DNA from: Streptantibioticus rubrisoli
GTDB taxonomy: Bacteria; Actinomycetota; Actinomycetes; Streptomycetales; Streptomycetaceae
Direction: 5' to 3'
NCBI RefSeq assembly: GCF_024436055.1
Contig: NZ_JANFNH010000012.1
Span: forward strand, 1 to 64,000
Length of the DNA stretch: 64,000 nt
Shown: positions 64-17,376 of the stretch, in pieces
Position numbering within the stretch: the stretch's first letter is position 1
How the letters are laid out: each line of letters begins with the position of its first letter
Program-made: the position numbers and the translations under genes
Notes under the pieces: generated by a model
Databases searched by the model: none
Told to the model about the DNA's origin: nothing
What the model saw: only the letters and a program-made list of their open reading frames with translations

Positions 64-1212
64 TCACTTCACCGGCGACAGGAAGTCGTCGGCGATCCGC
101 TGGGCCACCCGCTCCAACAGTGGTCCCGCCTCCGCGATGCACCGCAGGACGTCCGGCTCCAGTTCGGTGAGCGGGTAGGCGCGACGGATCCCCGCCGCCG
201 CCAGCTCCGCGGGCGGCAACGTCAGCCGCCCGCAGACCGCGACGACCTCGACTCCCCGGGCCCGCGCCGCCTGCGCGACGCCCGCGGGGGCCTTGCCGTG
301 CAGGGTCTGGGCGTCGAGCGAACCCTCCCCGGTGATCACGAAGTCGGCCCGGGCCAGCGCCTCGGCGAAGCCCAGCAGCTCGAACAGCACCTCGACCCCG
401 GGCCGGAACGCCGCCCCCAGACCCACCAGCGCCCCGTACCCGATGCCGCCCGCCGCACCCGCGCCCGGCGCCTCAGCGGCCTGGACCGCGCGAGCGCCGA
501 CCGCCTCACCCAGCACCCGCACATACCGCCCGAGCGCGGCGTCCAGCGCCTCGACATCGGCCGCACAAGCGCCCTTCTGCGGGCCGTAGACAGCCGCGGC
601 GCCCTTGGGGCCGCGCAGCGGGTTGTCCACATCGCTGGCCAGTACGACCTCCGTGTCGGCCAGCCGTGGCTCAAGCCCGCTGAGGTCGGCCGTGGCGAGC
701 GCGGCCAGCGCGGCGCCGCCGGGCCCGACCGGCTTGCCGTCCGCGTCGGTGAACGCCGCACCGAGGGCGGCCAGCATTCCGGCCCCACCGTCCGTCGTGG
801 CGCTGCCGCCGACCCCGAGCACGAGGGTGCGCGCTCCGGCGTCCAACGCGGCGCGCAGCAGCTCCCCGGTGCCGTACGTGGTCGCGGTGAGCGGTGCGAA
901 GACGCCGACCGGCAGGTGCCGCAGGCCCGACGCCTCGGCCATCTCGACGACGGCAACGGTGTCGCGCAGCGCGTAGGCCGCGGTCACCGGATCGCCCAGT
1001 GGCCCGGTCACCCGTGCCGTACGCCGTTCGAACCCGGCGGCGACCGCCGCGTCCACCGTGCCGTCGCCCCCGTCGGCGACCGGCAGGAACTCGACGCGCA
1101 GGCTGGGCACGGCCCGGTGCAGGCCGGTGGTGAGGTGCTGGGCCACTTCGGCGGCCGTCAGTGACCCCTTGAACTTGTCCGCGGCGATCAGCACGCTGCG
1201 AATTTCTGCCAC
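64..1212 (-). CDS. Glycerate kinase (GlxK family)
   Basis: This gene encodes a 382-residue kinase that phosphorylates D-glycerate, the usual exit from glyoxylate, tartronate semialdehyde or hydroxypyruvate metabolism into glycolysis. The sequence shows the family N-terminus ADKFKGSLTAAE, the glycine-rich GVGGSATTDGGAG segment near residue 135 and the C-terminal VITGEGSLDAQT motif. The length is normal for the family. The start is GTG at 1212, with GGAG about 9 nt upstream. It stands alone: a terminator lies downstream and a 645-bp gap separates it from the divergent conflict-type operon. The allantoin/glyoxylate region about 50 kb away could supply its substrate through glyoxylate, but that link is inference. 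Confidence 0.93.
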   Translation of the reverse strand: MAEIRSVLIAADKFKGSLTAAEVAQHLTTGLHRAVPSLRVEFLPVADGGDGTVDAAVAAGFERRTARVTGPLGDPVTAAYALRDTVAVVEMAEASGLRHLPVGVFAPLTATTYGTGELLRAALDAGARTLVLGVGGSATTDGGAGMLAALGAAFTDADGKPVGPGGAALAALATADLSGLEPRLADTEVVLASDVDNPLRGPKGAAAVYGPQKGACAADVEALDAALGRYVRVLGEAVGARAVQAAEAPGAGAAGGIGYGALVGLGAAFRPGVEVLFELLGFAEALARADFVITGEGSLDAQTLHGKAPAGVAQAARARGVEVVAVCGRLTLPPAELAAAGIRRAYPLTELEPDVLRCIAEAGPLLERVAQRIADDFLSPVK

Positions 1213-1857: not shown

Positions 1858-2253
1858 GTGCCGCAATACGCCGAGATACAACTCGACCCCAACACCTCCG
1901 TGCGCCTGGAACTCGCGCCGGTCGGCGTGCCCCCGCAACCCGCTCCCGCACCCGGCCCCGAGGCTGACGCCGCTGACCTGCCCGACGGCATCAGCGGGGC
2001 GGTGCCCGTCGGCCGGGCGGGCGCCGCCTCGGAGCTGACCTCGGAGGCGCTGCGGTTCACCCTGCGCCCGCTCGGCCCGCTGCTCCAGGAGGTGCATGAC
2101 TCGGTCAGCGCCATCAAGAACCCGCCACAGGAGATCAGCGTCGAGTTCGGCGTCCAGATCGGCCAGGACCTCAAACTCGGCATCGTCGGGGCCCGCGGGC
2201 GCGCGAGTCTGACGGTCACGGCTTCCTGGCAGGTCGGTCAGGATTCGGAGTGA
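1858..2253 (+). CDS. Trypsin-co-occurring (Trypco1 / CU044_2847-type) protein
   Basis: This 131-residue protein resembles the small family that accompanies trypsin-like proteases in actinobacterial vWA-MoxR-VMAP systems. The C-terminal half carries the conserved-looking core EISVEFGVQIGQDLKLGIVG followed by a short beta strand (ASLTVTASW). The N-terminal half has a beta region and an Ala/Pro-rich stretch. The GTG at 1858 has no visible Shine-Dalgarno sequence, and a CACAAT element lies 7 nt ahead of it, so the mRNA may be leaderless. The stop is 6 nt before the protease gene, so the two are surely co-transcribed. Known role: only co-occurrence. Inferred role: adaptor, inhibitor or specificity partner of the protease. 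Confidence 0.8.
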   Translation: MPQYAEIQLDPNTSVRLELAPVGVPPQPAPAPGPEADAADLPDGISGAVPVGRAGAASELTSEALRFTLRPLGPLLQEVHDSVSAIKNPPQEISVEFGVQIGQDLKLGIVGARGRASLTVTASWQVGQDSE

Positions 2254-2259
2254 GCACCT

Positions 2260-4437
2260 ATGGGGTGGTTCCGGTACCTCGGCGCGGATGACTCGGCCGG
2301 TGTGCACGACGCCTTCGTCTCCGTCTTACGGGAGAGCGATCAGCGGGCCGCCGGTGGCGGTGTGCTGCTCACCGAGCGCCATCTGCTGACCTGCGCCCAT
2401 GTGGTCAACGTGGCGCTGGGCAAGGAGCTGTTGGCGTCCGCCGATCCGGGTCCGGTGCGGATCGGGACCGTCTTCCCCGGCAGCGGCTCGCGGGTGCCGC
2501 AGGAGGCGCGGGTCGCCCACTGGGTGCCGCCCCGGCGCACCGGCGGCGGGCTGGACTGGAGCGGCGACCTCGCCGTCCTGGAACTGGACGCTCCCGCGCC
2601 GGTGGTGCCGCCGCGCTGGTCGGAGATGGTGCCGGGGCAGGGGGTGCGCGCCTGGCACGGCGGCGGGCACACGGCCACGTTCGTCGAGGTCACGGTCAAG
2701 GAGTGCGACGGCTGGATCGGCTACGTCGACGGTGAGCTTTCCGGCGCGGCGATCGGCCCCGGCTACAGTGGCGGCCCGCTGTGGTCGGAGCGCGAGGGCG
2801 CGTTCGTGGGTCTGGTCGCGGCCCAACTGCGCGCGCCCGACGGCCCGTTGGCCGCGCACCATGTGGTGCGGCGCGGTTGGGCGATCCCCTGGCAGGCGGT
2901 CCGTGCGGAACTGGAGTCCGCGGGCGCCGGGCCGCTGCTGGCGGCGGCGCAGGACACCGGGGACGCCGAGCGCGTACCGCACCAGTTGCTGCCGCCGCTC
3001 GCCGCGCTGCTGAGCGACCCGGCGGAGCGTACCGACAAGGCCCGGCGGCTGGCCGAGCAGTGCGGACTGCACGCCCTGGACGACGGTTCCGCGCCCACGT
3101 ACGAGGAGTTGGCGACGGTACTCGCCGAGTATCCGCGCGCCCTGCCCTCGCTCACCGAGGTGCTCGTGCCGACCGCGCACAGCATCGCGGCCCGCGACGC
3201 CATCGACACCCTGCACGCCAGCGGACCCCTGGCGGTCGGAGCGCGGCTGCTGTCATACGACGAACACCACCATCTGCTCGCCCAGTTGCGGCAGCACACC
3301 AAGACCGACCCGACCCTGCTGTCGTCCGCCGCGCGAGGCGCGCTCGCCTATGCGGAACTGCCGCAGCCGGTACGCGCGGCGCGGATCGCACCGGAGGGCC
3401 TGGAGGCCGCGGTGGACGCGCTGGAGGAACTCGGCGACAGCGGGCGCGTGCCCGACGGCACACCGCGGGTCCCCGCGCTGCTGCGGGTGGCCGAGTACGT
3501 GGCGGCGGCGCTGGACGGCCCGGCCGGTGACGAACTACGCGGCTGGAGCGATCGGGTGGCGACCCGGCTCGGCATCCACCCCGCCGCGTTGGCCGAACGC
3601 CGCAGGGACGCCGACGAGTGGGCGCGCAGCCGCCACGTCGACAGCGGCCGCACCGTCGTCCGGCTCACCCGCCGCCCCGGCGACCCGTCCGGCGCGTACC
3701 GGTGCACGGTGTGGCGGATGGCCCCGGACGGCACCGCGACCCGTGCCTCCACCGGCGAGGACCGCCCACTGAGCGGCGCCGACATCGCCCGCCTGGTGCG
3801 GGACGCCGTCGCGCCGGACGACGCGGAGGCGCCCCTGGTCGAGGTGGTGGTGGACCGCGACGCGCTGCAGTTGCCGGTGGACGAGTGGCGCGAGGCCGAG
3901 CCGGATGACAGCGATCCGTACGGCATCTTCGCCCCGGCGGCGCTCGGCGCCGACTTCCGGGTGGTGCTGCGCTGCCCGGAACTGCGCCGCAGGTCCGCGA
4001 CGGGCGCGGCCGACCTGCGGCGCCGTTGGACCGGGTGCCGTACCGACGAGACGCTGGTGGTGGACGAACTCATCGGCGACGTAAGGGCGTTGAAGGATAC
4101 ACTCAACAGGACACGGCAGCGGTCGACCGGCCGGGTGGTGCTGCACGGCCCTTTGGCCCGGCGGATCCAACTGCTTCAGGTGTGCCTGTTCATGGGCGTC
4201 CCGGTGGTGCTGTGGGACCGGGCGGCTGCCGGGCGGGACGACGGGCGGCATCTGGACGAGATCGACGCCGCGGGCCCGTTGGACTCGCTGCCGGAACGGG
4301 TCAGGGACTTCCGCGTCGATGTGTACGCCGATCCGGAACGCACCGCGCGGCCCTCGCTGGTCTGGGAGGATCCGGACCGGCCGCTTCCAGGTGAACTGTG
4401 GCTGGCGGACCCGGTGGCAATGACGGAGGAGAAGTGA
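2260..4437 (+). CDS. Trypsin-like serine protease fused to VMAP-type C-terminal region
   Basis: This 725-residue protein is the predicted effector of the operon. Residues 1-230 form a trypsin-like domain with a complete triad: His47 in TCAHVV, Asp103 in SGDLAVLEL and Ser170 in GPGYSGGPLW. Residues 240-440 are helical and resemble VMAP middle regions. Residues 450-720 match the vWA-MoxR-associated protein C-terminal domain, including VVDELIGDVRALK and the ending LPGELWLADPVA. There is no signal peptide, so the protease should be cytoplasmic. GGAG lies 9 nt before the ATG. Its last codons overlap the MoxR start (GTGA). In known ternary systems the VMAP protein couples an effector domain to a vWA/MoxR switch; the target and trigger here are unknown. 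Confidence 0.85.
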   Translation: MGWFRYLGADDSAGVHDAFVSVLRESDQRAAGGGVLLTERHLLTCAHVVNVALGKELLASADPGPVRIGTVFPGSGSRVPQEARVAHWVPPRRTGGGLDWSGDLAVLELDAPAPVVPPRWSEMVPGQGVRAWHGGGHTATFVEVTVKECDGWIGYVDGELSGAAIGPGYSGGPLWSEREGAFVGLVAAQLRAPDGPLAAHHVVRRGWAIPWQAVRAELESAGAGPLLAAAQDTGDAERVPHQLLPPLAALLSDPAERTDKARRLAEQCGLHALDDGSAPTYEELATVLAEYPRALPSLTEVLVPTAHSIAARDAIDTLHASGPLAVGARLLSYDEHHHLLAQLRQHTKTDPTLLSSAARGALAYAELPQPVRAARIAPEGLEAAVDALEELGDSGRVPDGTPRVPALLRVAEYVAAALDGPAGDELRGWSDRVATRLGIHPAALAERRRDADEWARSRHVDSGRTVVRLTRRPGDPSGAYRCTVWRMAPDGTATRASTGEDRPLSGADIARLVRDAVAPDDAEAPLVEVVVDRDALQLPVDEWREAEPDDSDPYGIFAPAALGADFRVVLRCPELRRRSATGAADLRRRWTGCRTDETLVVDELIGDVRALKDTLNRTRQRSTGRVVLHGPLARRIQLLQVCLFMGVPVVLWDRAAAGRDDGRHLDEIDAAGPLDSLPERVRDFRVDVYADPERTARPSLVWEDPDRPLPGELWLADPVAMTEEK

Positions 4438-5396
4438 ACGGCAACACCGAAGACGGCGACTGGCGGCTGTTCCGGGGGGACGGCACGGCCCGCGACACCG
4501 TCTTCCCCGAACCGCCGCCCTGGCGCCGGTTCGGCGACGCGTTCCAACAGCAGGCGCAGCGCCCGTACTTGATCGGCCGGGCCCAGTCCGATGTCGTCAA
4601 CGCGGCGCTGCATCTGCGCCGTCCGCTGCTGGTCACCGGCCATCCGGGCACCGGCAAGTCATCTCTGGCCCGGGCCATCGCCCATGAGCTGAAGCTGGGC
4701 AGGGTACTGACCTGGCCGGTCAACAGCCGTTCCGTGCTCCAGGACGCGCTGTACCGCTATGACGCGATCGGGCGCCTGCGCGAGACGGCGCTCCACCGCG
4801 ACCGCGGCGAGCAGTCGCCGGAGCCGGGCATCGGCTCCTTCGTGCGGCTCGGACCGCTGGGCACCGCGCTGCTGCCGAACGACAGACCGCGGGTGCTGCT
4901 CATCGACGAGCTCGACAAAGGCGATGTGGACTTGCCCAACGACCTGCTGGCGGTCTTCGAGGACGGCTCGTACGAGATCCCGGAGCTGGCCAGGCTGCCG
5001 CGTGAGCAGTCCGAGGTCGAGGTGTTCCCGGACGATCCGGACGGCGATCCGGTGCCGGTGGTACGCGGCCGGGTGTGCTGCACCCAGTTCCCGGTCGTGG
5101 TCATCACGAGCAACGGTGAGCGGGACTTCCCACCCGCCTTCCTGCGCCGCTGCGTTCGGCTGGACCTGCCGGACCCGGACGAGGAGCGGTTGCGCGAGAT
5201 CGTCACCGCGCACCTGGGGCAGGACGCCCTGGAGGCGGTGGACGATCTGCTACGGGACTTCCTGGCCCGCCGGGCGCCCGGTGAGCTGGCCACCGACCAG
5301 TTGCTGAACGCGGTGTTCCTGCGCTCCGGCGGGGTCGACCTGAGCGCCGAGGGCCTGTTGGACGCGGTGCTGCACCGGCTCGGCGGGGCGGTCTGA
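4434..5396 (+). CDS. MoxR-family AAA+ ATPase
   Basis: This is a 320-residue AAA+ ATPase of the MoxR type, normally a chaperone-like remodeller working with vWA proteins. Walker A is GHPGTGKSS (about residue 77), Walker B is LLIDELDKGD, sensor 1 is the ITSNGE segment and the arginine-finger region is FLRRCVR. All expected ATPase residues are present. The GTG at 4434 follows a strong GGAGGAG site and overlaps the protease stop codon by 4 nt, so translation is probably coupled. Position between protease-VMAP and the vWA fusion supports a role as the NTP-dependent switch of the system. Confidence 0.9.
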   Translation: MNGNTEDGDWRLFRGDGTARDTVFPEPPPWRRFGDAFQQQAQRPYLIGRAQSDVVNAALHLRRPLLVTGHPGTGKSSLARAIAHELKLGRVLTWPVNSRSVLQDALYRYDAIGRLRETALHRDRGEQSPEPGIGSFVRLGPLGTALLPNDRPRVLLIDELDKGDVDLPNDLLAVFEDGSYEIPELARLPREQSEVEVFPDDPDGDPVPVVRGRVCCTQFPVVVITSNGERDFPPAFLRRCVRLDLPDPDEERLREIVTAHLGQDALEAVDDLLRDFLARRAPGELATDQLLNAVFLRSGGVDLSAEGLLDAVLHRLGGAV

Positions 5397-5401
5397 CCGC
5401 C

Positions 5402-8400
5402 ATGCCCGGGCGGGTACGGCGGGTGCTCGCCGACTGCGGGGTCGATCTGTCGCCGCAGGAGCTGCTGGACGCCCTGTGGTTGGCCCACCGGCTGCCCGCC
5501 GACGCCTCGGCTCCGCTGGCCAGGGCCCTGGCCGCGGCCGAACCCGCGGCGGTGGACAGCGGTTCGGCGGCGGCCACCGAAGCGCCGTCTCCCGCGCGGG
5601 AACACGTGGCGCGAGAGGAGGCGCCACCCGCGCACCCGGGCACCTTGCACGCGAGCGCCACCATGGCGGCTGTCCCCAAGGCGGCGCGGAGCACGCCGCT
5701 GGCCGCACTGGCGGTCCGCGCGCCGGAGGAAAAAGCCCTTGGCGCCGCTGAGTTGCGGCTGGGACGCGCGTTGCGACCGCTCAAGCAGCGGCACCCCGGT
5801 GGCCGCCTGCTGGAGTTGGACGAGCGGGCCACCGCGGACGCCATGGCAGAGACCGGGCTTCCGGACCTGGTACTGCGCCCCGCGGGCGAGCGCCGACTTG
5901 ACCTGGCGCTGGTCGTGGACGACGGCCTGTCCATGCTGCTGTGGCGTCGACTCGCCACCGAGCTGCGGTCGTTGCTGGAGCGGCTCGGTGCGTTCCGCTC
6001 GGTGCGGGTGCACGGGCTCGACACCCGCGCGGTGGGCGAACCGGCGTTGCGCGGGCGCCCGTTCGCTCCCCAGGCGGCTGGTCTGCGCCCGGGGTCGGTG
6101 GCCGACCCGACCGGGCGGACCCTCGTGCTGGTGGTCAGTGACGGTGTGGGCGCGGCATGGCGGGACGGCCGGATGCGCCGACTCCTCGCCCGCTGGGCGG
6201 CGTGCGGGCCGACTGCCGTGCTGCACGCCCTGCCCGCCCGGATGTGGAACACCTCCGGGATCCGCACGGAGGACTGGCAGGTGACGGTGGGCCAGACCTG
6301 GGCGGCCAACCGCACCTGGCGGGTGGCGGATCCGGTACTGCCGCCGGAGCTGGCGCCGTTCGACGGCATGCCCATCCCCGTCCTCGAACCGGAACCCTCA
6401 TCGGTGGCCAGGTGGGCCCGGCTGGTCGCCTCGCCGGGCGGCAGCGAGCTGCTGCCGCTGCTGGCCGACGCGCCCGAGGAGGTACCGCGCCCCGCCGCGC
6501 CGTCCGGGGGCGGTGGTGATCCGGTGCTGCGGTTCCGCAGTGCCGCCTCGCCGGAGGCGTACCGGCTGGCCGCGCATCTGGCGGCGGTCGCACCGGTGTC
6601 GGTACCGGTGATGCGGCTGGTGCAGTCGGCGGTGCCCTGGCGGGCCGAGACCGCGCATCTGGCCGAGGTGTTTTTGGGCGGCCTGATGCGGCGCACCGAC
6701 GGCGGGGGCTGCGGCACCGGGCCGCAGCACCAGACGTTCGACTTCACCGAGGAGGCCCGCAAGATCCTGCTGGACACCGTCCCGGCCGCGGAACTGGCGC
6801 GCACCACCAGCGCGGTGGCCGACCGGCTCGGGGAACTCGTGGGCCGCTCACCCGACTTCCCCGCCTGGTTGTCGCACCCCGGCGGGGTGGACGAGGTGTC
6901 CGGCGCGTCCCAGCCGTTCGCCGAGCTGGACGCACGGCTGATGCGGCATCTGGGCGCGCCTGTGGAGCGACCCGCGTCACGACAACGGCAGACCTGGGGG
7001 CCGCTGGAACCCGACGATCCGCTCGCCGTCGGCCCGTACGCCCTGTACGCGCGCAGCGAAGCCAGCGGGTTCTGCGTGCTCTACCTGGGCCGCTCCGGGT
7101 CGGGGCGGGAAGCGCTGCTGCGGCTACCCCGCAGTCCGGATCCGGCGCGCGCCTACCAACTCATCCGGCGGACGGCCCTGGCGCTGACGCGCATGGGCGG
7201 CCGGTACGCGCCCGCGCTGCGCGACTTCGACCTGGCGCAGCCGCCCTACTGGACGGCGGAGGAACTGCTGGTGGGGCCGTCCGGTGAGCCCGCGCCGCAA
7301 CTGCCCTTCCTGGTACGGGAGAAGGATCCGGCGCCGGGTTCCGCGCTGTGCTACGAACTCAGTTGGGGCCTGGCGCGGGCGGTGGCCCGCTGCCACGACG
7401 CGGGGATGGCGCACTGCGCGCTGGCCCCTTCGTCGGTACTGGTCACCGGGCAGGCGTCGGTACGGCTCACCGGTTGGGCGCACGTGCTCATCGACCCCCC
7501 GGAGAACGAACTGCGGGTGGCCTGCGCCTCCGACGTCTATTCGCTCGGCACACTGCTGATCGCACTCAACTCCCGCTCGATGCCGTGGAGTCCGGCGGAG
7601 GGAGAACTACGCGGCTCCTCGTCCTGGCTGCCCCGGGTGCCCCATCCCGACCTGCGGAAGTTGCTGAGCCGGTGCATCGCGCTGGATCCGCGGACGCGAC
7701 CGACCGCTCATGAGGTGGCGGACGCGTTCGCCGCTCAGCTGCCGGACGGAGCAACCCGGTCGGCGGCACTACGGGAGGCGGTCCCTGAGGACGGGGCCCC
7801 GGCGCCCGTCGTGGAGGCGCCGTCCCCGTCCGCGCGGCTGTGGCTGCCGCAGCGCCGTACCGCCATGGGCAGACAGCTGCAGGAACGGCGACTGGAGCTG
7901 GTCCAGCGTCCGTTGGCCCGCTGCCACCGGATCGTCGTGGTCAGCGCCGTGCGCTTTGCGGGAGCGTCCACGACGGCGCACGCGCTGGGCGCGCTGCTGG
8001 CGTCCGTGCGGGAGAACAGCAGGGTCGTACTGATCACCAACGACCGCAAGTGGTTCGCCGGAAGTGATGCCTCCGGGCTGCGCATCCCGCGGATCGAGCG
8101 CAATCCCGACGGTCCGCTGAGCACGCCGAGGAGCTATCGGGGACTGGTCAACAGCCTGCGCGGCGAGTGCGACATCCTGATCACCGACACGGACGCGGAG
8201 ATGCCACTGCCCGGCGGGCATCTGACGGAATCTCTGGTGGACCAACTGGTCATCGTGGCAGCGCCGTCCAGCAAGCGGAGCGCGGCGGTCGACGCCACGG
8301 ACGCGCTGTTCGACCTGGTCGCCAAGCACGCTTCGGAGCGGCTGGTCGCACAGAGCATCGCCGTCATCTCCCAGCACCACGGCAGTGCGGGGGCGCATCG

Positions 8401-8578
8401 GGATCTGTCGGACCGGCTGCGCGGCCGCTGCCGGGGCTTTGTGAGCATTCCGTCGGACAGCGGTCTGGCAGGCGGGCGCTTCCCCGATCCGGCGCTGCTG
8501 CGGGGGGTGACGCGGGAGCGGTACCTGGATCTGGCGGCGCTGGTCGCGCAGGGCTTCCCGCCGGTTGGTCCTTCGTAG
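5402..8578 (+). CDS. SAV_2336-type vWA / pseudokinase / degenerate ParA-like fusion protein
   Basis: This is a 1058-residue multidomain protein. A short SAV_2336-like N-terminus (1-30) and an Ala/Pro linker precede a vWA-like domain (about 165-285) whose MIDAS segment reads DDGLSM, a weakened DxSxS. A helical middle region follows. Residues 543-776 look like a protein kinase fold, but the catalytic loop reads HCALAPSSVL near residue 671 in place of HRDLKPxN, and the DFG position reads LTGW, so it should be a pseudokinase. Residues 840-1050 resemble ParA/MinD. The P-loop is degenerate (AVRFAGASTT, no Lys), and DILITDTDAE marks the Walker B region. The start has a poor ribosome site and lies 5 nt after the MoxR stop, suggesting coupling. 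Likely role: sensor or scaffold of the system. Confidence 0.8.
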   Translation: MPGRVRRVLADCGVDLSPQELLDALWLAHRLPADASAPLARALAAAEPAAVDSGSAAATEAPSPAREHVAREEAPPAHPGTLHASATMAAVPKAARSTPLAALAVRAPEEKALGAAELRLGRALRPLKQRHPGGRLLELDERATADAMAETGLPDLVLRPAGERRLDLALVVDDGLSMLLWRRLATELRSLLERLGAFRSVRVHGLDTRAVGEPALRGRPFAPQAAGLRPGSVADPTGRTLVLVVSDGVGAAWRDGRMRRLLARWAACGPTAVLHALPARMWNTSGIRTEDWQVTVGQTWAANRTWRVADPVLPPELAPFDGMPIPVLEPEPSSVARWARLVASPGGSELLPLLADAPEEVPRPAAPSGGGGDPVLRFRSAASPEAYRLAAHLAAVAPVSVPVMRLVQSAVPWRAETAHLAEVFLGGLMRRTDGGGCGTGPQHQTFDFTEEARKILLDTVPAAELARTTSAVADRLGELVGRSPDFPAWLSHPGGVDEVSGASQPFAELDARLMRHLGAPVERPASRQRQTWGPLEPDDPLAVGPYALYARSEASGFCVLYLGRSGSGREALLRLPRSPDPARAYQLIRRTALALTRMGGRYAPALRDFDLAQPPYWTAEELLVGPSGEPAPQLPFLVREKDPAPGSALCYELSWGLARAVARCHDAGMAHCALAPSSVLVTGQASVRLTGWAHVLIDPPENELRVACASDVYSLGTLLIALNSRSMPWSPAEGELRGSSSWLPRVPHPDLRKLLSRCIALDPRTRPTAHEVADAFAAQLPDGATRSAALREAVPEDGAPAPVVEAPSPSARLWLPQRRTAMGRQLQERRLELVQRPLARCHRIVVVSAVRFAGASTTAHALGALLASVRENSRVVLITNDRKWFAGSDASGLRIPRIERNPDGPLSTPRSYRGLVNSLRGECDILITDTDAEMPLPGGHLTESLVDQLVIVAAPSSKRSAAVDATDALFDLVAKHASERLVAQSIAVISQHHGSAGAHRDLSDRLRGRCRGFVSIPSDSGLAGGRFPDPALLRGVTRERYLDLAALVAQGFPPVGPS

Positions 8579-8772: not shown

Positions 8773-10581
8773 TCAGCGGCCGACCGCGTACCCCTGCATA
8801 CCGCGGGGGTTGGCGGCGGCGCTGAGCACACCGGTGGCGGGGTCCCGGGCGACGGCGCACAGTCGGCCCTCGGTCCATGACTCGCCGACCGTGACATGGT
8901 GTCCGCGGGCGCGCAGCGCGGCGATGGTCCGCTCCCCCAGGCGAGACTCGACGGTGACGCTGCCGGGCAGCATGGCGCGGGGATGGAACGAGCTGGGGAA
9001 GCTGTCGTTGTGCCAGTTCGGGGCGTCGATGGCGCCCTGGAGGTCGAATCCGCAGCGCACGGCGGGGCGCAGTGCCACGGCGAGGAAGAAGTGCAGGCTC
9101 CACTGGTCCTGCTGGTCTCCGCCGGGAGTGCCGAACGCCAGCACGGGCTGGCCGTCGCGGAGCGCGAGAGACGGGGAGAGGGTGGTGCGCGGCCGTCGGC
9201 CGGGGGTGAGGGAGTTCGGCAACCCCGGCTCCAGCCAGGTCATTTGGAGCCGGGTGCCCAGCGGGAAGCCGAGTTCGGGTACGACCGGGTTGGACTGCAG
9301 CCAACCGCCGCTGGGGGTCGCGGCGATCATGTTGCCCCAGCGGTCGACGACATCGAGGTGGCAGGTGTCGCCGCGGGTCGCGCCGTCGGACGCGACGGTG
9401 GGCTCGCCCGCTCCGGCTACGGCGAGCGGGTCCCAGAGGCGGTCACCGCCTCGTCTGGCGGCGGCACGTCGCGCCTGGCGGGGCAGGCGGGGGGTGCGGC
9501 CGCCGGGGCTGCCGGGGCGCAGGTCGTGCGATGCGGTGTCGCCGACGAGCTGTCGGCGGTCGGATGCGTAGGAGTCGGAGAGGAGGTCGTCCAGGGGGAC
9601 GGTGCCGGGTTGCGCGTCGCCGTACCAGGCCTCGCGGTCGGCCATGGCGAGCTTGGCGCCCTCGATGAGCAGGTGCGGGTAGTCCTCGGTGCCGTAGGTC
9701 AACTCTTCCGGCAGCAGGGCGAGTTGCTGGAGGAAGACCGGGCCCTGGCTCCAGGGGCCGGGTTTGGCGACGGTCCAGCCGTCCCAGTCGTAGGTGACGG
9801 GTTCCTCGTAGGCGGCGGACCAGTTCGCCAGGTCGTCGCCGGTGAGCACTCCGGCGTGCCGTTCGCCGCTGGTGTCGAGGGCGGGGCGGGCGGCGAAGGA
9901 GGCGAGGGCTTCGGCGATGAAGCCTTCGCGCCAGACCCGGCGGGCGGCGTCTATCCGGTTCTCCCGGCTGCCGGGGGCCGCCTCGGCCTCGGCGATGAGG
10001 CGGCGCCAGGTCCGGGCCAGGATGGGGTTCTTCAGGAGCTGTCCGGGGACTGGGGAGCGGCCGTCGGGTAGATAGAGCTGGGCGGAGGTGGTCCATTCAC
10101 GGAGGAACAGTTCGCGTACCGCTTCGACGGTGCCGCAGGCGGCTTCGACGGCGGGGTGGCCTCCTTCCGCGTACCCGATGGCGTGGGCGAGTACGTCGGC
10201 GAGCGGCTTGGTGCCGTGGTCGCGCAGCAGGAGCAGCCAGGCGTCGAAGGCTCCGGGTACGACGGCGGCCAACGGGCCGGTGCCGGGGACGAGTTCGAGG
10301 CCGAGGCCGGTGTAGCGGTCGATCGTGGCGCCCGCGGGCGCGGGACCCTGACCGCACAGTACGCGTACCTCGCCACCCGCGGGCGCGAGGATGATGGGGA
10401 CCTCGCCCGCCGGGCCGTTGAGGTGTGGCTCGACGACGTGCAGTACGAACGCGGCGGCGACGGCGGCGTCGAAGGCGTTGCCGCCGTCCTCCAGTACCGC
10501 CATGGCGGACTGGGACGCCAGCCAGTGGGTGGAGGACACCATGCCGAACGTGCCCTGCAGGGTGGGGCGCGTGGTGAACAT
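8773..10581 (-). CDS. Gamma-glutamyltransferase-family protein (cytoplasmic type)
   Basis: This 602-residue N-terminal nucleophile hydrolase is of the gamma-glutamyltranspeptidase/acylase family. The early GNAFDAAVAAAF motif and the central GDTCHLDVVDRWGN segment are visible; the Thr of TCH is the expected autoprocessing nucleophile. The C-terminal small-subunit-like part includes SPSLALRDG and FGTPGGDQQDQW. No signal peptide is visible, unlike the second family member at 21512-23338. An Arg-rich insertion of about 30 residues precedes the nucleophile. The start at 10581 was chosen because it begins the conserved N-terminus (TFGMVSSTH) just after the stop of the SCP2 gene. The substrate is unknown: glutathione, a gamma-glutamyl compound or an acyl-amino compound are all possible. 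Confidence 0.85.
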   Translation of the reverse strand: MFTTRPTLQGTFGMVSSTHWLASQSAMAVLEDGGNAFDAAVAAAFVLHVVEPHLNGPAGEVPIILAPAGGEVRVLCGQGPAPAGATIDRYTGLGLELVPGTGPLAAVVPGAFDAWLLLLRDHGTKPLADVLAHAIGYAEGGHPAVEAACGTVEAVRELFLREWTTSAQLYLPDGRSPVPGQLLKNPILARTWRRLIAEAEAAPGSRENRIDAARRVWREGFIAEALASFAARPALDTSGERHAGVLTGDDLANWSAAYEEPVTYDWDGWTVAKPGPWSQGPVFLQQLALLPEELTYGTEDYPHLLIEGAKLAMADREAWYGDAQPGTVPLDDLLSDSYASDRRQLVGDTASHDLRPGSPGGRTPRLPRQARRAAARRGGDRLWDPLAVAGAGEPTVASDGATRGDTCHLDVVDRWGNMIAATPSGGWLQSNPVVPELGFPLGTRLQMTWLEPGLPNSLTPGRRPRTTLSPSLALRDGQPVLAFGTPGGDQQDQWSLHFFLAVALRPAVRCGFDLQGAIDAPNWHNDSFPSSFHPRAMLPGSVTVESRLGERTIAALRARGHHVTVGESWTEGRLCAVARDPATGVLSAAANPRGMQGYAVGR

Positions 10582-10583
10582 GG

Positions 10584-11066
10584 TTACGCCCGAGGGATGT
10601 CGAAGTAGGACAGCAGCCCTCCGGCCAGCCGTAGGTCGCCTTGCATCTTCAGCTTGCGGGTGAGGAACAGGGCCGGTCCTGAGGCGTTGCCGGAGGCCAG
10701 CCGGAGCAGTTCCGGCGCGGCCATGGTGAGCGTCAGCCGGGCGGGGCGGTCGGTGCCGTGCGGGGTGACCACGCACCGTCCGTCGGCGATGTACGTCTCG
10801 TAGGTGTCCAGGGCGCCGCCCGCGCCGGTGATCCGCCAGCGCACCAGCGCGGTGCGGTCGCCCGCCTGGGCCGGGTTGAACAGGGTCTCCATGCGGCGGA
10901 AGAGTTCGTCGAGCACCCGCCTGCGGTGCGGCCCGGCCATCACCTCGGCGGTCCTCCTGGCGGGCGTGTCCCGGACGATGCGGGCGAACTCAGCGGACTC
11001 GACGGAGCGCAGATCGAGGGTGCCGAGGTCGAGGGTGCCGAGGTCGAGGTCGTCGCTGGTCGCCAT
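10584..11066 (-). CDS. SCP2 sterol-binding domain protein
   Basis: This 160-residue protein has an SCP2-like lipid-binding fold. The segment ending with RPARLTLTMAAPELLRLASG and the terminal KLKMQGDLRLAGGLLSYF are typical of the family, which carries hydrophobic ligands in a tunnel. The N-terminus begins with a repeated DLGTLDLGTLDL stretch encoded by a near-perfect 15-bp direct repeat (about 11023-11056). The stop codon is 2 nt before the start of the transferase gene, so they form an operon. The AAAGG about 10 nt before the ATG is an acceptable ribosome site. Confidence 0.8.
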   Translation of the reverse strand: MATSDDLDLGTLDLGTLDLRSVESAEFARIVRDTPARRTAEVMAGPHRRRVLDELFRRMETLFNPAQAGDRTALVRWRITGAGGALDTYETYIADGRCVVTPHGTDRPARLTLTMAAPELLRLASGNASGPALFLTRKLKMQGDLRLAGGLLSYFDIPRA

Positions 11067-12738: not shown

Positions 12739-13749
12739 TCAAGTCAGGGCAGGGATCACCTCGTTGCCGTAGGCGTCGATCACCGCCTCCCGGGCGTCGT
12801 GCATGGCGTAGAGGGCGAACTGGGTGACGCCCAGGTCGCGTAGGCGGCGGAGCTTCTCCCTGTGGGCCTCCGCAGGACCCAGGAGGCAGAAGCGGTCGAC
12901 CACGGCGTCGGGCACGAAGGCCGTGTCCGGGTTGCCGACGCGGCCGTGGTGGGAGTAGTCGTAGCCCTGCCGTTCCTCGATGTAGGCGGTCAACTCCTCG
13001 GGAATCTCGGCCGAGTGCTCGCCGTAGCGCGCCACCAGGTCGGCCACATGGTTGCCGACCATGCCGCCGAACCACCTCGTCTGCTCACGGGCGTGGGCGA
13101 GCCCCTCCTGCGTCCCGTCGGTGACATAGGCGGGCGCGGCCACGCAGATCCTCACGTCGTCCGGGTCACGCCCGGCGTCCGCGGCGGCCGTGCGCACCGC
13201 CTTGACCATCCACTCGGTGAGGAAGGGATCGGCCAGTTGCAGGATGAAGCCGTCCGCCTCGCGCCCCGCGAGGGCCAGCGCCTTGGGGCCGTAGGCGGCC
13301 ATCCACACCGGCAGTCTGCCGTCCTTGACCCAGGGCAGCCGCAGCGAGGTGCCGTCGACCGCGACCTCCCGGCCCTCCGCGAGTGCGCGGATGACGCGCA
13401 TCGCCTCGCTCAGCGTCGCCAGGGTGTTGGGCTTGCGTCCCGCGACCCGCATCGCCGAGTCGCCGCGGCCGATCCCGCACACCGTGCGGTTGCCGTACAT
13501 CTCGTTGAGCGTCGCGAAGGTGGCGGCGGTGACCTCCCAGGCGCGGGTGGCCGGATTGGTGACCATGGGCCCGACGATCAGCCGCTCGGTGTGTTCCAGC
13601 ACCCTGCTGTAGATGACGTAGGGCTCCTGCCACAGCACGGTGGAGTCGAAGGTCCAGCCGTAGCGGAAGCCGTTCCGCTCGGCGCGGCACATCAGGTCGA
13701 CCACCGCCGAGGCGGGCGGATCGGCCTGCAGGACCAGTCCGAAGTCCAT
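12739..13749 (-). CDS. F420-type LLM-class oxidoreductase (TIGR03842-like)
   Basis: This 336-residue TIM-barrel protein belongs to the bacterial luciferase-like superfamily and is closest to predicted F420-dependent oxidoreductases (MSMEG_2906/CPS_4043 type). Recognisable parts are [12 protein letters not shown] at the N-terminus, the [16 protein letters not shown] cofactor-region motif and [16 protein letters not shown]. Biochemical function in the family is unknown to me. It is the fourth cistron, 11 nt after the dihydropyrimidinase stop, and a hairpin follows it directly. A role in the first, reductive step of pyrimidine breakdown is therefore attractive but unproven. A flavin monooxygenase analogous to RutA is the alternative. 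Confidence 0.85.
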
Positions 13750-13760
13750 CTACCACTCCC

Positions 13761-15176
13761 CTAGTGTCCGGTGAGGTACTGACAGATACCGCGCGGCTGG
13801 TACTGGCCGTGCCCGGCCCGGCCCACGTAGCTGCGGGCGTCGATGACCAACTCGCCGCGTGACAGCACGGTTTCGACCCGCCCGGTGACCCGCTTGCCCT
13901 CGTAGGCCGAGTAGTCGACGTTCATGTGGTGGCTCTCGGCGGAGATCACCTGCTCGGCGTGCGGGTCGTAGACGACCACGTCGGCGTCGGCACCGGGCGC
14001 CAGGGTTCCCTTGCGCGGGTAGAGGCCGAACATCCGCGCGGGGGCGGCGCAGGCCAGCTCGATCCAACGGCGGCGCGTCAACTTCCCCTCCACCACGGCC
14101 TGGTGGAGCAGGTCCATCCGGTTCTCCACGCCCGGCAGGCCGTTGGGGATCCTGGAGAAGTCACCGCGGCCCAGCTCCTTCTGCCCGTAGAAGCAGAACG
14201 GGCAGTGGTCGGTGGAGACCACCGACAGGTCGTCGGTGCGCAGCGCCCGCCACAGCGCCGCCTGGTGCTCCACGGGGCGCAGCGGTGTGGAGCACACGTA
14301 CTTGGCGCCCTCGAAGTCAGGCCTGGCCAGATCGTCGGCGGACAGGAACAGGTACTGCGGGCATGTCTCGCCGAAGACGTCCAGCCCCAGGTCACGGGCG
14401 TGCGCCAGCTCGGCCACGGCCTCGGCGGCGGAGACGTGCACGACGTACAGCGGTGCTCCGGCGACCCGGGCGAGCTGGATGGCGCGGTGCGTGGCCTCGG
14501 CCTCCAGCAGCGCCCTGCGGACTTCCCCGTGGTAGCGGGGGTCGGTGTGCCCGGCGGCCAGCGCCTGCTCCACCAGTACGTCGATGGCGATGCCGTTCTC
14601 GGCGTGCATCATGATCAGCCCGCCGTTGCCCGAGGCGCGCTGCATGGCCCGCAGGATCTTCCCGTCGTCGCTGTAGAACACCCCGGGATAGGCCATGAAC
14701 AGCTTGAACGAGGTGCAGCCCTCCTCGACGAGGAGGTCCATCTCCTTCAGGGTGTGCTCGTTGACGTCGGCGAGGATCATGTGAAAGCCGTAGTCGATGG
14801 CGCACTGCGCATCGGCCTTGGCGTGCCAGGCGTCGAGTCCTTCGCGCAGCGAGTGGCCCACGCTCTGGACCGCGAAGTCGATGATGGTGGTGGTGCCGCC
14901 CCAGGCGGCGGCGCGGGTTCCGGTGGCGAAGGAGTCCGAGGCGAAGGTGCCGCCGAACGGCATCTCCATGTGGGTGTGCGCGTCAACTCCGCCCGGAACG
15001 ACGTACTTTCCGGTGGCGTCGATCGTGCGGTCGGCGCTCCATCCGGCGGCCGCCTGGCTGCCGTGCGCGGCCAGCGCGGCGATCCGGGGGCCCTCGATGA
15101 GGATGTCGGCGTGCACCTCGTCGGCGGCGGTGATCACCAGTCCGCCGCGGATCACGGTACGTGCGGTACGGCTCAT
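13761..15176 (-). CDS. hydA: Dihydropyrimidinase / D-hydantoinase
   Basis: This 471-residue amidohydrolase opens dihydropyrimidine or hydantoin rings to N-carbamoyl amino acids. All metal ligands are visible: His67 and His69 (DAHTHM), the carboxylated Lys158 (CTSFKLF), His191 (MMHAEN), the VHVS histidine and Asp in STDHCPF. Length and motif order match the family well. The ATG overlaps the aminotransferase stop codon by 4 nt (ATGA). It sits between the aminotransferase and the LLM oxidoreductase in an operon that would convert dihydrouracil to malonate semialdehyde. Hydantoin substrates cannot be excluded. Confidence 0.95.
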   Translation of the reverse strand: MSRTARTVIRGGLVITAADEVHADILIEGPRIAALAAHGSQAAAGWSADRTIDATGKYVVPGGVDAHTHMEMPFGGTFASDSFATGTRAAAWGGTTTIIDFAVQSVGHSLREGLDAWHAKADAQCAIDYGFHMILADVNEHTLKEMDLLVEEGCTSFKLFMAYPGVFYSDDGKILRAMQRASGNGGLIMMHAENGIAIDVLVEQALAAGHTDPRYHGEVRRALLEAEATHRAIQLARVAGAPLYVVHVSAAEAVAELAHARDLGLDVFGETCPQYLFLSADDLARPDFEGAKYVCSTPLRPVEHQAALWRALRTDDLSVVSTDHCPFCFYGQKELGRGDFSRIPNGLPGVENRMDLLHQAVVEGKLTRRRWIELACAAPARMFGLYPRKGTLAPGADADVVVYDPHAEQVISAESHHMNVDYSAYEGKRVTGRVETVLSRGELVIDARSYVGRAGHGQYQPRGICQYLTGH

Positions 15177-16528
15177 GGCGTGGCCTTCCCCTCTCGCAGT
15201 CGCTCGGTCGCGGTGCGCAACGCGTCCTGAAGGATCCCGGCGCCCTCCTCGGCCTCGGCGACGGTGAGGGTGAGCGGCGGTGCGACGCGCAGCACGTTGC
15301 CCTCCCTGCCGCCCTTGCCGATCAGCAGTCCGCCTTCCCTGGCGGCCTCCAGCACCGCGGTGGCCGCCTGCGGCGAGGGGTCCTCGGTGCCGGGCGCCAC
15401 CAGCTCCACGCCGAGCATCAGGCCCCGGCCGCGTACCTCCCGTACCAGCGGGGAGGCGGCGGCGATCGCGGACAGCCGGGCGGCCAGCAGTCCGCCGACC
15501 CGGCGGGCGTTGCCCTGGAGGTCGTGCTCCAGTAGGTACTTGAGGTTGGCGAGGGCGCCCGCGGTGGTGACCGGGCTGCCGCCGAACGTCGAGATGGAGT
15601 TGGCGGTGAGGCAGTTCATCACCTCCGCCCGGGCGACGACGCCGCCCATGGACAGGCCGTTGCCGATGCCCTTGGCGAAGGTGAGGATGTCCGGCGGTCC
15701 CGACTGGCTGTGCGCCTGCCAGCCCCAGAAGTGCTCGCCGGTGCGTCCCCAGCCGGTCTGCACCTCGTCGCTGATCCACAGGATGCCACGGGGTGCGAGG
15801 ACTTCGCGGAACGCGGCGAGCAGCCCGTCCGGCGGCGCGGTGAACCCGCCCACGCCCTGGATGGGTTCGGCGATCAGTGCCGCGACCGAGCCGCCTGCCT
15901 GCCCGAGGACGTCCTCCAGGTCGGCGACGCAGGCGGCGATGAACTCGGCGTCGGTGAGCTGGGCGTAGGGGCCGCGGCTGCGGACCGCACCGTGTACGTA
16001 GAGCGTCTGCAGCGGTGACAGGCTCGTCGGCGACCAGGCGGTGTTGCCGGTGACGCCGACGGCGGAGAAGGAGCGGCCGTGGTAGCTGTTGCGCAGCGCC
16101 AGCACCTGGTTGGAGCGGGTGTGACTGGTGGCCAGCAGCAGTGCGGTGTCGTTGGCCTCGGTGCCGGAGGTGGTGAAGAAGACCCTGGCGTCGGGAATGC
16201 CGGACAACCGGGCGATGTGCTCGGCGAGTTCGACCGCGGAGCGGTTCAGGTACAGCGTCGAGGAGTGCAGGATCCTTGCGGCCTGCTCGCTGACCGCCCG
16301 GGTGACCTCGGGCAGGGCGTGCGCGGTCATGGTGGTGAGGATGCCGCCGAAGAAGTCGAGGTACCTGTTGCCTTCCGCGTCCCAGACGTGGCGCCCCTCG
16401 CCGTGCGTGATCTCGATGGGCTGCCGGTAGTACGTGGCGAGCCAGTCGGGCATGACGGCGCGGTGACGGGCGTGCAGGCTGGCGTGGTCGCCGTTGCTGG
16501 GTGCGGATGTTTCGGTCATGGCCGTCAT
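15173..16528 (-). CDS. Class III aminotransferase, probably beta-alanine:pyruvate type
   Basis: This 451-residue PLP enzyme has the class III fold. The PLP-binding Lys is K286 in TFAKGIGNG, the Asp that binds the ring nitrogen is in WISDEVQTG, and STFGGSPVTTA is the conserved segment near the second subunit contact. The start at 16528 lies 5 nt past the stop of the beta-ureidopropionase gene. MTETS nine bases later (16519) is an alternative. Its end overlaps hydA. In this operon the expected substrate is beta-alanine (or 3-aminoisobutyrate), giving malonate semialdehyde. Other omega-amino acids such as 4-aminobutyrate remain possible. Confidence 0.92.
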   Translation of the reverse strand: MTAMTETSAPSNGDHASLHARHRAVMPDWLATYYRQPIEITHGEGRHVWDAEGNRYLDFFGGILTTMTAHALPEVTRAVSEQAARILHSSTLYLNRSAVELAEHIARLSGIPDARVFFTTSGTEANDTALLLATSHTRSNQVLALRNSYHGRSFSAVGVTGNTAWSPTSLSPLQTLYVHGAVRSRGPYAQLTDAEFIAACVADLEDVLGQAGGSVAALIAEPIQGVGGFTAPPDGLLAAFREVLAPRGILWISDEVQTGWGRTGEHFWGWQAHSQSGPPDILTFAKGIGNGLSMGGVVARAEVMNCLTANSISTFGGSPVTTAGALANLKYLLEHDLQGNARRVGGLLAARLSAIAAASPLVREVRGRGLMLGVELVAPGTEDPSPQAATAVLEAAREGGLLIGKGGREGNVLRVAPPLTLTVAEAEEGAGILQDALRTATERLREGKATP

Positions 16529-16533
16529 AACGA

Positions 16534-17376
16534 TCACGGCTCCACAAGGTCGCCGTAGGCGTCTGGCCGGCGGTCCCGGTAGAACGCCCACTGCTGCCTG
16601 ACCTCTTCGATCATCGCGAAGTCGAGGTCGCGCACGACCAGCTCCTCTTCCTTGTCGCTGGCGGTGTCGCCGACGAACTGCCCGCGCGGGTCGACGAAGT
16701 ACGAGGTGCCGTAGAAGTCGTCGTCGCCGTAGATCTCGTGTCCGACACGGTTGATGGCGGCGACGAAGTACTCGTTGGCGACCGCGGCGGCGGGCTGCTC
16801 CAACTGCCACAGGTAGGCGGACAGTCCACGGGAGGTGGCCGACGGGTTGTAGACCAGCTGCGCTCCGGCGAGGCCGAGGGCCCGCCAGCCCTCGGGGAAG
16901 TGGCGGTCGTAGCAGATGTAGACGCCGATCCTGCCGACCGCGGTGTCGAAGACCGGCCAGCCGAGGTTGCCGGGCCTGAAGTAGTACTTCTCCCAGAAGC
17001 CCTTGACCTGGGGGATGTGGTGCTTGCGGTACTTGCCGAGGACGGTGCCGTCGGCGTCGATGACCGCGGCGGTGTTGTAGTAGAAGCCGGTCTGCTCCAC
17101 CTCGAAGACGGGGGCGACGATCACCATCCCGGTCTCGCGGGCCAGCGCGGACATCCGGCGGATGGTGGGGCCGTCGGGGACGGGCTCGGCCCAGCGGTAA
17201 TGCTCGGGCTCCTGGACCTGGCAGAAGTACGGGGCGTTGAAGACTTCCTGGAAGCCGATCACCTTGGCGCCCTGTGCGGCCGCCGCGCGGGCGTGCGCCT
17301 CGTGCTTGGCGATCATCGATTCGGTGTCACCGGTCCAGGTCGCCTGGACCAGTGCGGCGCGTACAACTGTGGCCAT
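16534..17376 (-). CDS. Beta-ureidopropionase / nitrilase-family amidohydrolase
   Basis: This 280-residue nitrilase-superfamily enzyme should hydrolyse N-carbamoyl-beta-alanine to beta-alanine, CO2 and ammonia. The catalytic triad is present: Glu44 (GFQEVFN), Lys118 (YRKHHIP) and Cys155 (VYICYDRHFPE). The segment FWEKYYFRPG is typical of N-carbamoyl amidases. The ATG at 17376 has a strong AAAGGAG site 8 nt upstream. It is the first gene of a four-cistron operon; a 7-2-7 inverted repeat lies 34 bp upstream and the MarR gene is divergent. Confidence 0.93.
   Translation of the reverse strand: MATVVRAALVQATWTGDTESMIAKHEAHARAAAAQGAKVIGFQEVFNAPYFCQVQEPEHYRWAEPVPDGPTIRRMSALARETGMVIVAPVFEVEQTGFYYNTAAVIDADGTVLGKYRKHHIPQVKGFWEKYYFRPGNLGWPVFDTAVGRIGVYICYDRHFPEGWRALGLAGAQLVYNPSATSRGLSAYLWQLEQPAAAVANEYFVAAINRVGHEIYGDDDFYGTSYFVDPRGQFVGDTASDKEEELVVRDLDFAMIEEVRQQWAFYRDRRPDAYGDLVEP

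What the first reader, a model, noticed from the sequence alone, without database searches (positions are those of the whole stretch)
5402..8578. One protein with vWA, pseudokinase and a Lys-less ParA/MinD-like domain
The catalytic loop HCALAPSSVL replaces HRDLKPxN, the DFG motif is LTGW, and the C-terminal P-loop lacks the Lys (AVRFAGASTT). Both nucleotide-binding modules appear dead or altered at once in a single protein, which suggests a sensor of nucleotides or of active kinases/ParA proteins rather than an enzyme.
Basis: partly seen in the sequence, partly recalled or inferred. Interest (0 to 1): 0.72.

Follow-up and report, generated by a model that had tools for sequence, protein, structure and literature searches.

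The report
Dead kinase-ParA effector of VMAP system
The protein is the variable, enzymatically dead end-piece of a known type of bacterial conflict system, and its two dead modules look like degenerate copies of two working proteins of the same cell, a propeller-type protein kinase and a ParA-like ATPase linked to type VII secretion.

Summary
The 1058-aa ORF at 5402-8578 carries a vWA core (SAV_2336_NTERM, 408 bits), a kinase-fold domain with HRD->HCA, catalytic Lys->Ala, DFG Asp->Gly and beta3 Lys->Arg, and a ParA/MinD-fold domain with both P-loop lysines lost. Structure models are confident; the closest solved folds are PknA/PknB and FlhG/ParA. It is not a lone oddity: it is the last gene of a complete VMAP ternary system (Trypco1, trypsin-VMAP, MoxR, vWA). 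Kaur et al. 2020 already described vWA components ending in an inactive kinase plus an inactive MinD/ParA, so this is a new member of a known kind. What I add: the ParA module comes from one resident family, the SCO5717-type ATPase, whose gene lies beside T7SS EccB in a related genome. The effector profile scores 317 bits on this genome's own SCO5717 protein and at most 41 on its other ParAs. In one relative the module is 87% identical to SCO5717, keeps the P-loop and nests inside that clade. The pseudokinase's best intact relative in the genome is a PQQ-propeller kinase. The ParA module is under strong purifying selection; the pseudokinase evolves 3-4 times faster than the vWA core. Most likely role: non-catalytic binding effector. 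Function is untested.

The parts
1858..2253 (+). Trypco1 (trypsin-co-occurring domain 1) protein, 131 aa
   Evidence: PF19493, 60.5 bits, cutoff 24.6
2260..4437 (+). VMAP component, 725 aa: trypsin-like peptidase, VMAP-M0, VMAP-C; trypsin His/Asp/Ser motifs (TCAHVV, DLAVLEL, GYSGGPL) read from the sequence
   Evidence: PF20028 127 bits, PF13365 43.5 bits, PF19916 26.8 bits; motifs in translation
4434..5396 (+). MoxR-type AAA ATPase; longest ORF starts at 4398, but GTG at 4434 overlaps the VMAP stop (GTGA), the likely start. Walker A GHPGTGKS and Walker B LLIDELD intact; N-terminal WRLFRG and PPWRRF match the VMAP-system MoxR motifs WxhapG and PsWRxa
   Evidence: PF07728 31 bits, translation, motifs from PMC7159879
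5402..8578 (+). vWA/effector component, 1058 aa (the finding)
5453..6844 (+). SAV_2336 N-terminal domain: helical N-terminal extension, linker, vWA domain with both metal-site Asp regions (VVDDGLS, VVSDG), C-terminal extension
   Evidence: NF041121 407.8 bits, cutoff 200, residues 18-481
7019..7771 (+). pseudokinase domain, residues about 540-790
   Evidence: AF2 model pLDDT 90.5; Foldseek top PknA/PknB E 9e-12; Pfam Pkinase 29.8 bits, just below the 31.7 cutoff
7121..7123 (+). beta3 Lys replaced by Arg574 (Arg in 76 of 85 aligned family members)
7412..7441 (+). degenerate catalytic loop HCALAPSSVL (for HRDLKPxN)
7466..7477 (+). LTGW in place of the strand leading into DFG (Asp->Gly, Phe->Trp)
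7883..8557 (+). Lys-less ParA/MinD-fold domain of SCO5717 type, residues about 828-1052
   Evidence: AF2 model pLDDT 85.6; Foldseek FlhG/ParA/ParF/Soj E 1e-7 to 1e-5; BLAST to resident SCO5717 protein 29% identity, E 3e-23
7946..7975 (+). degenerate deviant Walker A AVRFAGASTT (for LKGGVGKTTT)

Best explanation
This is the vWA component of a VMAP ternary conflict system. Shown by sequence: four genes in the VMAP-system order, a vWA core, and a C-terminal tail made of a pseudokinase and a Lys-less ParA. Shown by comparison: the ParA module belongs with the SCO5717 ATPase family that every surveyed streptomycete carries, and the pseudokinase resembles a resident PQQ-propeller Ser/Thr kinase. Inferred: the complex sits off; VMAP senses an invader; MoxR uses ATP to remodel the vWA protein; the trypsin domain may cut the tail free; the tail then acts by binding, not catalysis, occupying partners of the resident kinase and SCO5717 ATPase (dominant-negative) or baiting invader proteins aimed at them (decoy). 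My odds: VMAP-system identity 0.97, non-catalytic tail 0.85, mimicry of the resident parents as the mode of action about 0.5.
For: System; all 76 related loci with enough flank carry VMAP, MoxR and vWA genes in this order on one strand, 73 of 80 also Trypco. Dead modules; of 69 family members with a ParA module none has an intact kinase triad and only 3 keep the Walker A Lys. Folds; profile search without the two intact kinases still finds StkP/PknB at 1e-16. Provenance: effector-ParA profile scores 317 bits on the genome's own SCO5717 protein, at most 41 bits on its other ParA-like proteins; L044 is 87% identical to SCO5717 and nests inside that clade with support 100/93; SCO5717 family assignment 47.6 bits, cutoff 35; resident propeller kinase L167, 28% identity, E 1e-19. 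Constraint: ParA dN/dS 0.12-0.22, vWA 0.13-0.16, pseudokinase 0.41-0.52. Published precedent for the architecture and the decoy idea: PMC7159879.
Against: No experiment shows what any VMAP effector does. Common descent from a resident protein does not prove that the module still touches that protein's partners. The ParA module of this genus is only 29% identical to SCO5717, so interfaces may have changed. In a subfamily (17 of 69) the HRD and DFG Asp persist and 3 of 69 keep the P-loop Lys, so loss of activity is not universal. Proteolytic release is inferred from the trypsin domain alone; no cleavage site was identified.
Confidence: 0.55

Rival explanations
1. The two dead modules are scaffolding or regulatory parts of the complex itself: the pseudokinase and Lys-less ParA hold the VMAP-MoxR-vWA assembly off or set its geometry, and do not mimic anything.
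For: The Lys-less ParA module is as constrained as the vWA core within the genus, as a structural part would be; pseudokinases commonly act as scaffolds (general knowledge).
Against: The same vWA core carries quite different tails in relatives (alignments end near residue 520 in L008 and L011-L015; 17 of 80 loci without a ParA-like tail), so the core does not need this tail; the pseudokinase evolves 3-4 times faster than the core.
Confidence: 0.22
2. Nucleotide or ligand sensor: one or both modules still bind ATP/GTP (or another ligand) without hydrolysis and report the energy or signalling state.
For: Beta3 Lys is replaced by Arg in 76 of 85 members rather than by random residues, and the P-loop Gly854 and Thr857 persist in 60 and 58 of 63, so the pocket regions are not free of constraint.
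Against: Both P-loop lysines are lost and 32 residues after strand 2 are deleted in this genus; in the pseudokinase the catalytic Lys, HRD Asp and metal-binding DFG Asp are all gone.
Confidence: 0.12
3. An atypical but active enzyme: the domains use other residues for catalysis, as some former pseudokinases do.
For: Fold retained with high confidence.
Against: Every canonical catalytic and metal ligand of the kinase and the P-loop Lys of the ParA are replaced, and the replacements vary freely between relatives at catalytic Lys and Asn positions, unlike a new active site.
Confidence: 0.05
4. Decaying pseudogene tail without function.
For: Active-site residues are lost.
Against: Open frame in all relatives with alignable tails, dN/dS of the ParA module 0.12-0.22, codon-position GC normal.
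Confidence: 0.02

Closest known systems
VMAP ternary systems (vWA-MoxR subsystem 1) of Kaur, Burroughs, Iyer, Aravind, eLife 2020, PMC7159879
   Same: Gene order VMAP-MoxR-vWA, Trypco/trypsin variant, MoxR N-terminal motifs, vWA with metal-site Asp, variable C-terminal effectors; [quoted passage not shown]
   Different: Nothing structural.
NCBIfam NF041121 SAV_2336 N-terminal domain proteins
   Same: Residues 18-481, 407.8 bits against a cutoff of 200
   Different: The model covers only the vWA part, not the tail
SCO5717 family growth-regulating ATPase (NF041021; resident copy in locus L035)
   Same: Full-length homology over the ATPase domain plus the preceding ERxxxLELxxxPL segment
   Different: Window protein lacks the SCO5717 N-terminal domain, both P-loop lysines and 32 residues after strand 2
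PknB-type actinobacterial Ser/Thr kinases, especially the resident PQQ-propeller kinase L167
   Same: Kinase fold and N-terminal DPxxxGP start
   Different: All catalytic residues lost, no propeller

Membership tests
VMAP ternary system | VMAP gene, then MoxR gene, then vWA gene, same strand | tested here: met
   2260-4437, 4434-5396, 5402-8578 all +
VMAP ternary system | VMAP-C domain | tested here: met
   PF20028 127.3 bits, cutoff 27
VMAP ternary system | MoxR N-terminal motifs WxhapG and PsWRxa | tested here: met
   WRLFRG and PPWRRF in the translation, motifs
VMAP ternary system | vWA with conserved Asp at the ends of strands 1 and 4 | tested here: met
   LALVVDDGLSM and LVLVVSDGVG, conserved in the relatives listed
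VMAP ternary system | C-terminal effectors that differ between relatives | tested here: met
VMAP ternary system | role in biological conflict (anti-invader) | not testable with these tools
   Predicted in PMC7159879 from variability and context; no assay known to me
Protein kinase fold | bilobal kinase fold | tested here: met
Active protein kinase | beta3 Lys, HRD Asp, catalytic Lys, DFG Asp | tested here: not met
   Arg, Ala, Ala, Gly
ParA/MinD (SIMIBI) fold | Rossmann-type SIMIBI fold | tested here: met
   TM-scores 0.54-0.73, moderate because of the deletion
Active ParA/MinD ATPase | deviant Walker A KGGxGK[ST] with both lysines | tested here: not met
   VRFAGAST; both lysines absent
SCO5717 family ATPase | SCO5717 N-terminal domain NF041021 | tested here: not met
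   No hit in the window protein; resident L035 protein hits at 47.6 bits
SCO5717-type ATPase domain lineage | closer to SCO5717 than to other ParA/MinD of the genome | tested here: met
   317 bits against at most 41 bits for the effector profile; tree

The most novel reading that the evidence does not exclude
VMAP systems of streptomycetes repeatedly capture a piece of the cell's own SCO5717 ATPase, whose gene sits beside type VII secretion genes, inactivate it, and keep it under purifying selection as a releasable dominant-negative or decoy that shuts off or guards SCO5717-dependent growth or secretion during infection; the linked pseudokinase does the same for a propeller kinase.
Probability: 0.2. 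Interest if true: 0.65.

Novelty: new member of a known kind. Interest (0 to 1): 0.33.

Why it matters
The architecture itself is published, so the finding as given is not new. The useful gain is that the ParA-like effector can be traced to one named resident family with an active copy in the same genome, which turns the general idea of 'inactive copies of cellular enzymes as decoys' into a concrete test with known candidates: SCO5717 and a PQQ-propeller kinase. The series from an intact, 87% identical copy (L044) through an intermediate one (L141, KSGIGKTT) to the Lys-less form in the window offers natural material for asking when and why activity is lost.

Tried and rejected
Sequence-only Pfam search does not detect the ParA domain of the window protein at all, even at E 10, and detects the kinase only below cutoff; alignments of relatives and structure prediction were needed. 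One family-wide search failed on the server and was repeated with 150 genomes. The opposite strand over the ORF and the overlapping ORFs were considered: the 534-aa and 489-aa minus-strand ORFs overlap the codon-biased gene and carry the usual high-GC shadow-ORF character; not pursued. The kinase profile included two intact kinases, so it was repeated without them; the hit remains. Literature search for SCO5717 in the open library found nothing. Pseudogene reading rejected by dN/dS. SL051 (locus L051) is a SCO5717-like protein with GGTGRTT; not followed. The statement that all members are dead was tested and is false: see L044, L106, L141 for the P-loop Lys and 17 of 69 for kinase Asp residues.

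Full report
Observation. HCALAPSSVL, LTGW and AVRFAGASTT are at residues 671, 689 and 849. Two homologous proteins with intact kinases (L092, L122) fix the columns: beta3 Lys is Arg574, HRD Asp is Ala673, catalytic Lys is Ala675, DFG Asp is Gly691. The resident SCO5717-type ATPase (KGGVGKTT) fixes the P-loop: both lysines are lost (Val850, Ala855), and a 32-residue stretch after the second strand is missing.

Folds. With alignments of relatives, AlphaFold2 gives a kinase-region model with mean pLDDT 90.5 whose best solved matches are M. tuberculosis PknA and PknB (E 9e-12, TM about 0.7), and a ParA-region model with mean pLDDT 85.6 whose matches are FlhG, ParA, ParF, Soj and MinD (E 1e-7 to 1e-5, TM 0.54-0.73). 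Sequence profiles agree: kinases StkP/PknB at 1e-16 even after leaving out the two intact kinases, and MinD, ParA and BY-kinase domains at 3e-7 to 1e-5 for the ParA region.

Context. The gene is the last of four on the same strand: a Trypco1 protein (1858-2253), a VMAP with trypsin, VMAP-M0 and VMAP-C domains (2260-4437), a MoxR AAA ATPase (likely 4434-5396, GTGA overlap with the VMAP stop, read from the sequence) and the vWA protein (SAV_2336_NTERM, 407.8 bits). This is the VMAP ternary system of Kaur et al. 2020 (PMC7159879), including the MoxR motifs WxhapG and PsWRxa (WRLFRG and PPWRRF here). Of 80 related loci in named genomes, all 76 with enough flank have VMAP, MoxR and vWA in that order on one strand. 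The genome holds a second VMAP system whose vWA protein has a different tail with no Pfam match (L030).

What was already known. [quoted passage not shown] The finding is a member of that published set.

What is added here. First, the source of the ParA module. The profile of effector ParA modules scores 317 bits on the genome's own SCO5717-family ATPase and at most 41 bits on its other ParA-like proteins. All 150 genomes surveyed in the family have a match to the effector profile, in most of them to its ParA part alone, as a SCO5717 protein would give. In a related genome the SCO5717 gene is next to T7SS EccB, with EccC further along the contig. Second, capture happened more than once: in the tree, L044 sits inside the SCO5717 clade (support 100/93, 87% identity to a SCO5717 protein) and the tree needs three label changes among effectors. 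Third, loss of activity is gradual: of 69 members with a ParA module, L044, L106 and L141 keep the Walker A Lys, while none has all three kinase catalytic residues; 17 keep two of them. Fourth, constraint differs: between this genome and two sister species the dN/dS is 0.12-0.22 for the ParA module, 0.13-0.16 for the vWA core and 0.41-0.52 for the pseudokinase. Three sequences and a simple counting method (Nei-Gojobori), so the ranking is firmer than the values. Fifth, the best resident relative of the pseudokinase is an intact PQQ-propeller Ser/Thr kinase (L167), which agrees with the published origin.

Mechanism. Shown: operon, domains, dead residues, provenance of the ParA module, purifying selection. 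Inferred: that the complex is off until VMAP senses an invader, that MoxR remodels the vWA protein, that trypsin may free the tail, and that the tail works by binding. The inference follows the published model. I favour mimicry of the resident parents (dominant-negative or decoy), at about even odds; an internal scaffold is the main rival. A nucleotide sensor is less likely because the pockets are where residues were lost, though the near-universal Arg for the beta3 Lys (76 of 85) shows that the site is not free to drift.

Verdict. Observation confirmed, interpretation partly supported, architecture known. Interest is modest for the finding as given and somewhat higher for the traced parent.

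Noticed in passing
L044 (effector ParA of genome G144), L141, L106: VMAP-system vWA proteins whose ParA module still has the Walker A Lys (KGGVGKTT, KSGIGKTT, PEAGKAV) while the kinase next to it is already dead; L044 is 87% identical to a SCO5717 ATPase, a recent capture.
   Followed up: partly
L092:6645-7544, L122:6654-7592: Relatives of the same vWA core with catalytically intact kinases (HRDLKP, DFG) and no ParA module, so active kinase tails also exist on this scaffold.
   Followed up: no
L109:7506-8348, L133:7518-8360: P-loop region carries a five-residue insertion that looks like a tandem repeat (YHYGGRVYSGRA, YHYGGRVYNGRA) in an otherwise AYHYSGRATT-type module.
   Followed up: no
L051 (genome G070): SCO5717-like protein with GGTGRTT in the P-loop (Lys to Arg); not established whether it is a VMAP component or a stand-alone degenerate paralogue.
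   Followed up: no
L030:3652-10414 (G000 contig C6): Second VMAP ternary system in the same genome (vWA 455 bits, VMAP-C 122 bits); the tail of its vWA protein has no Pfam match.
   Followed up: partly
window 7121-7123 and family alignment: The beta3 Lys of the pseudokinase is Arg in 76 of 85 family members, a conserved replacement rather than drift; reason unknown.
   Followed up: no
window 64-1212 (-), 8773-10776 (-), 12739-13749 (-), 13761-16547 (-): Flanking genes are ordinary metabolism: glycerate kinase, gamma-glutamyltranspeptidase, F420-dependent oxidoreductase, dihydropyrimidinase.
   Followed up: partly
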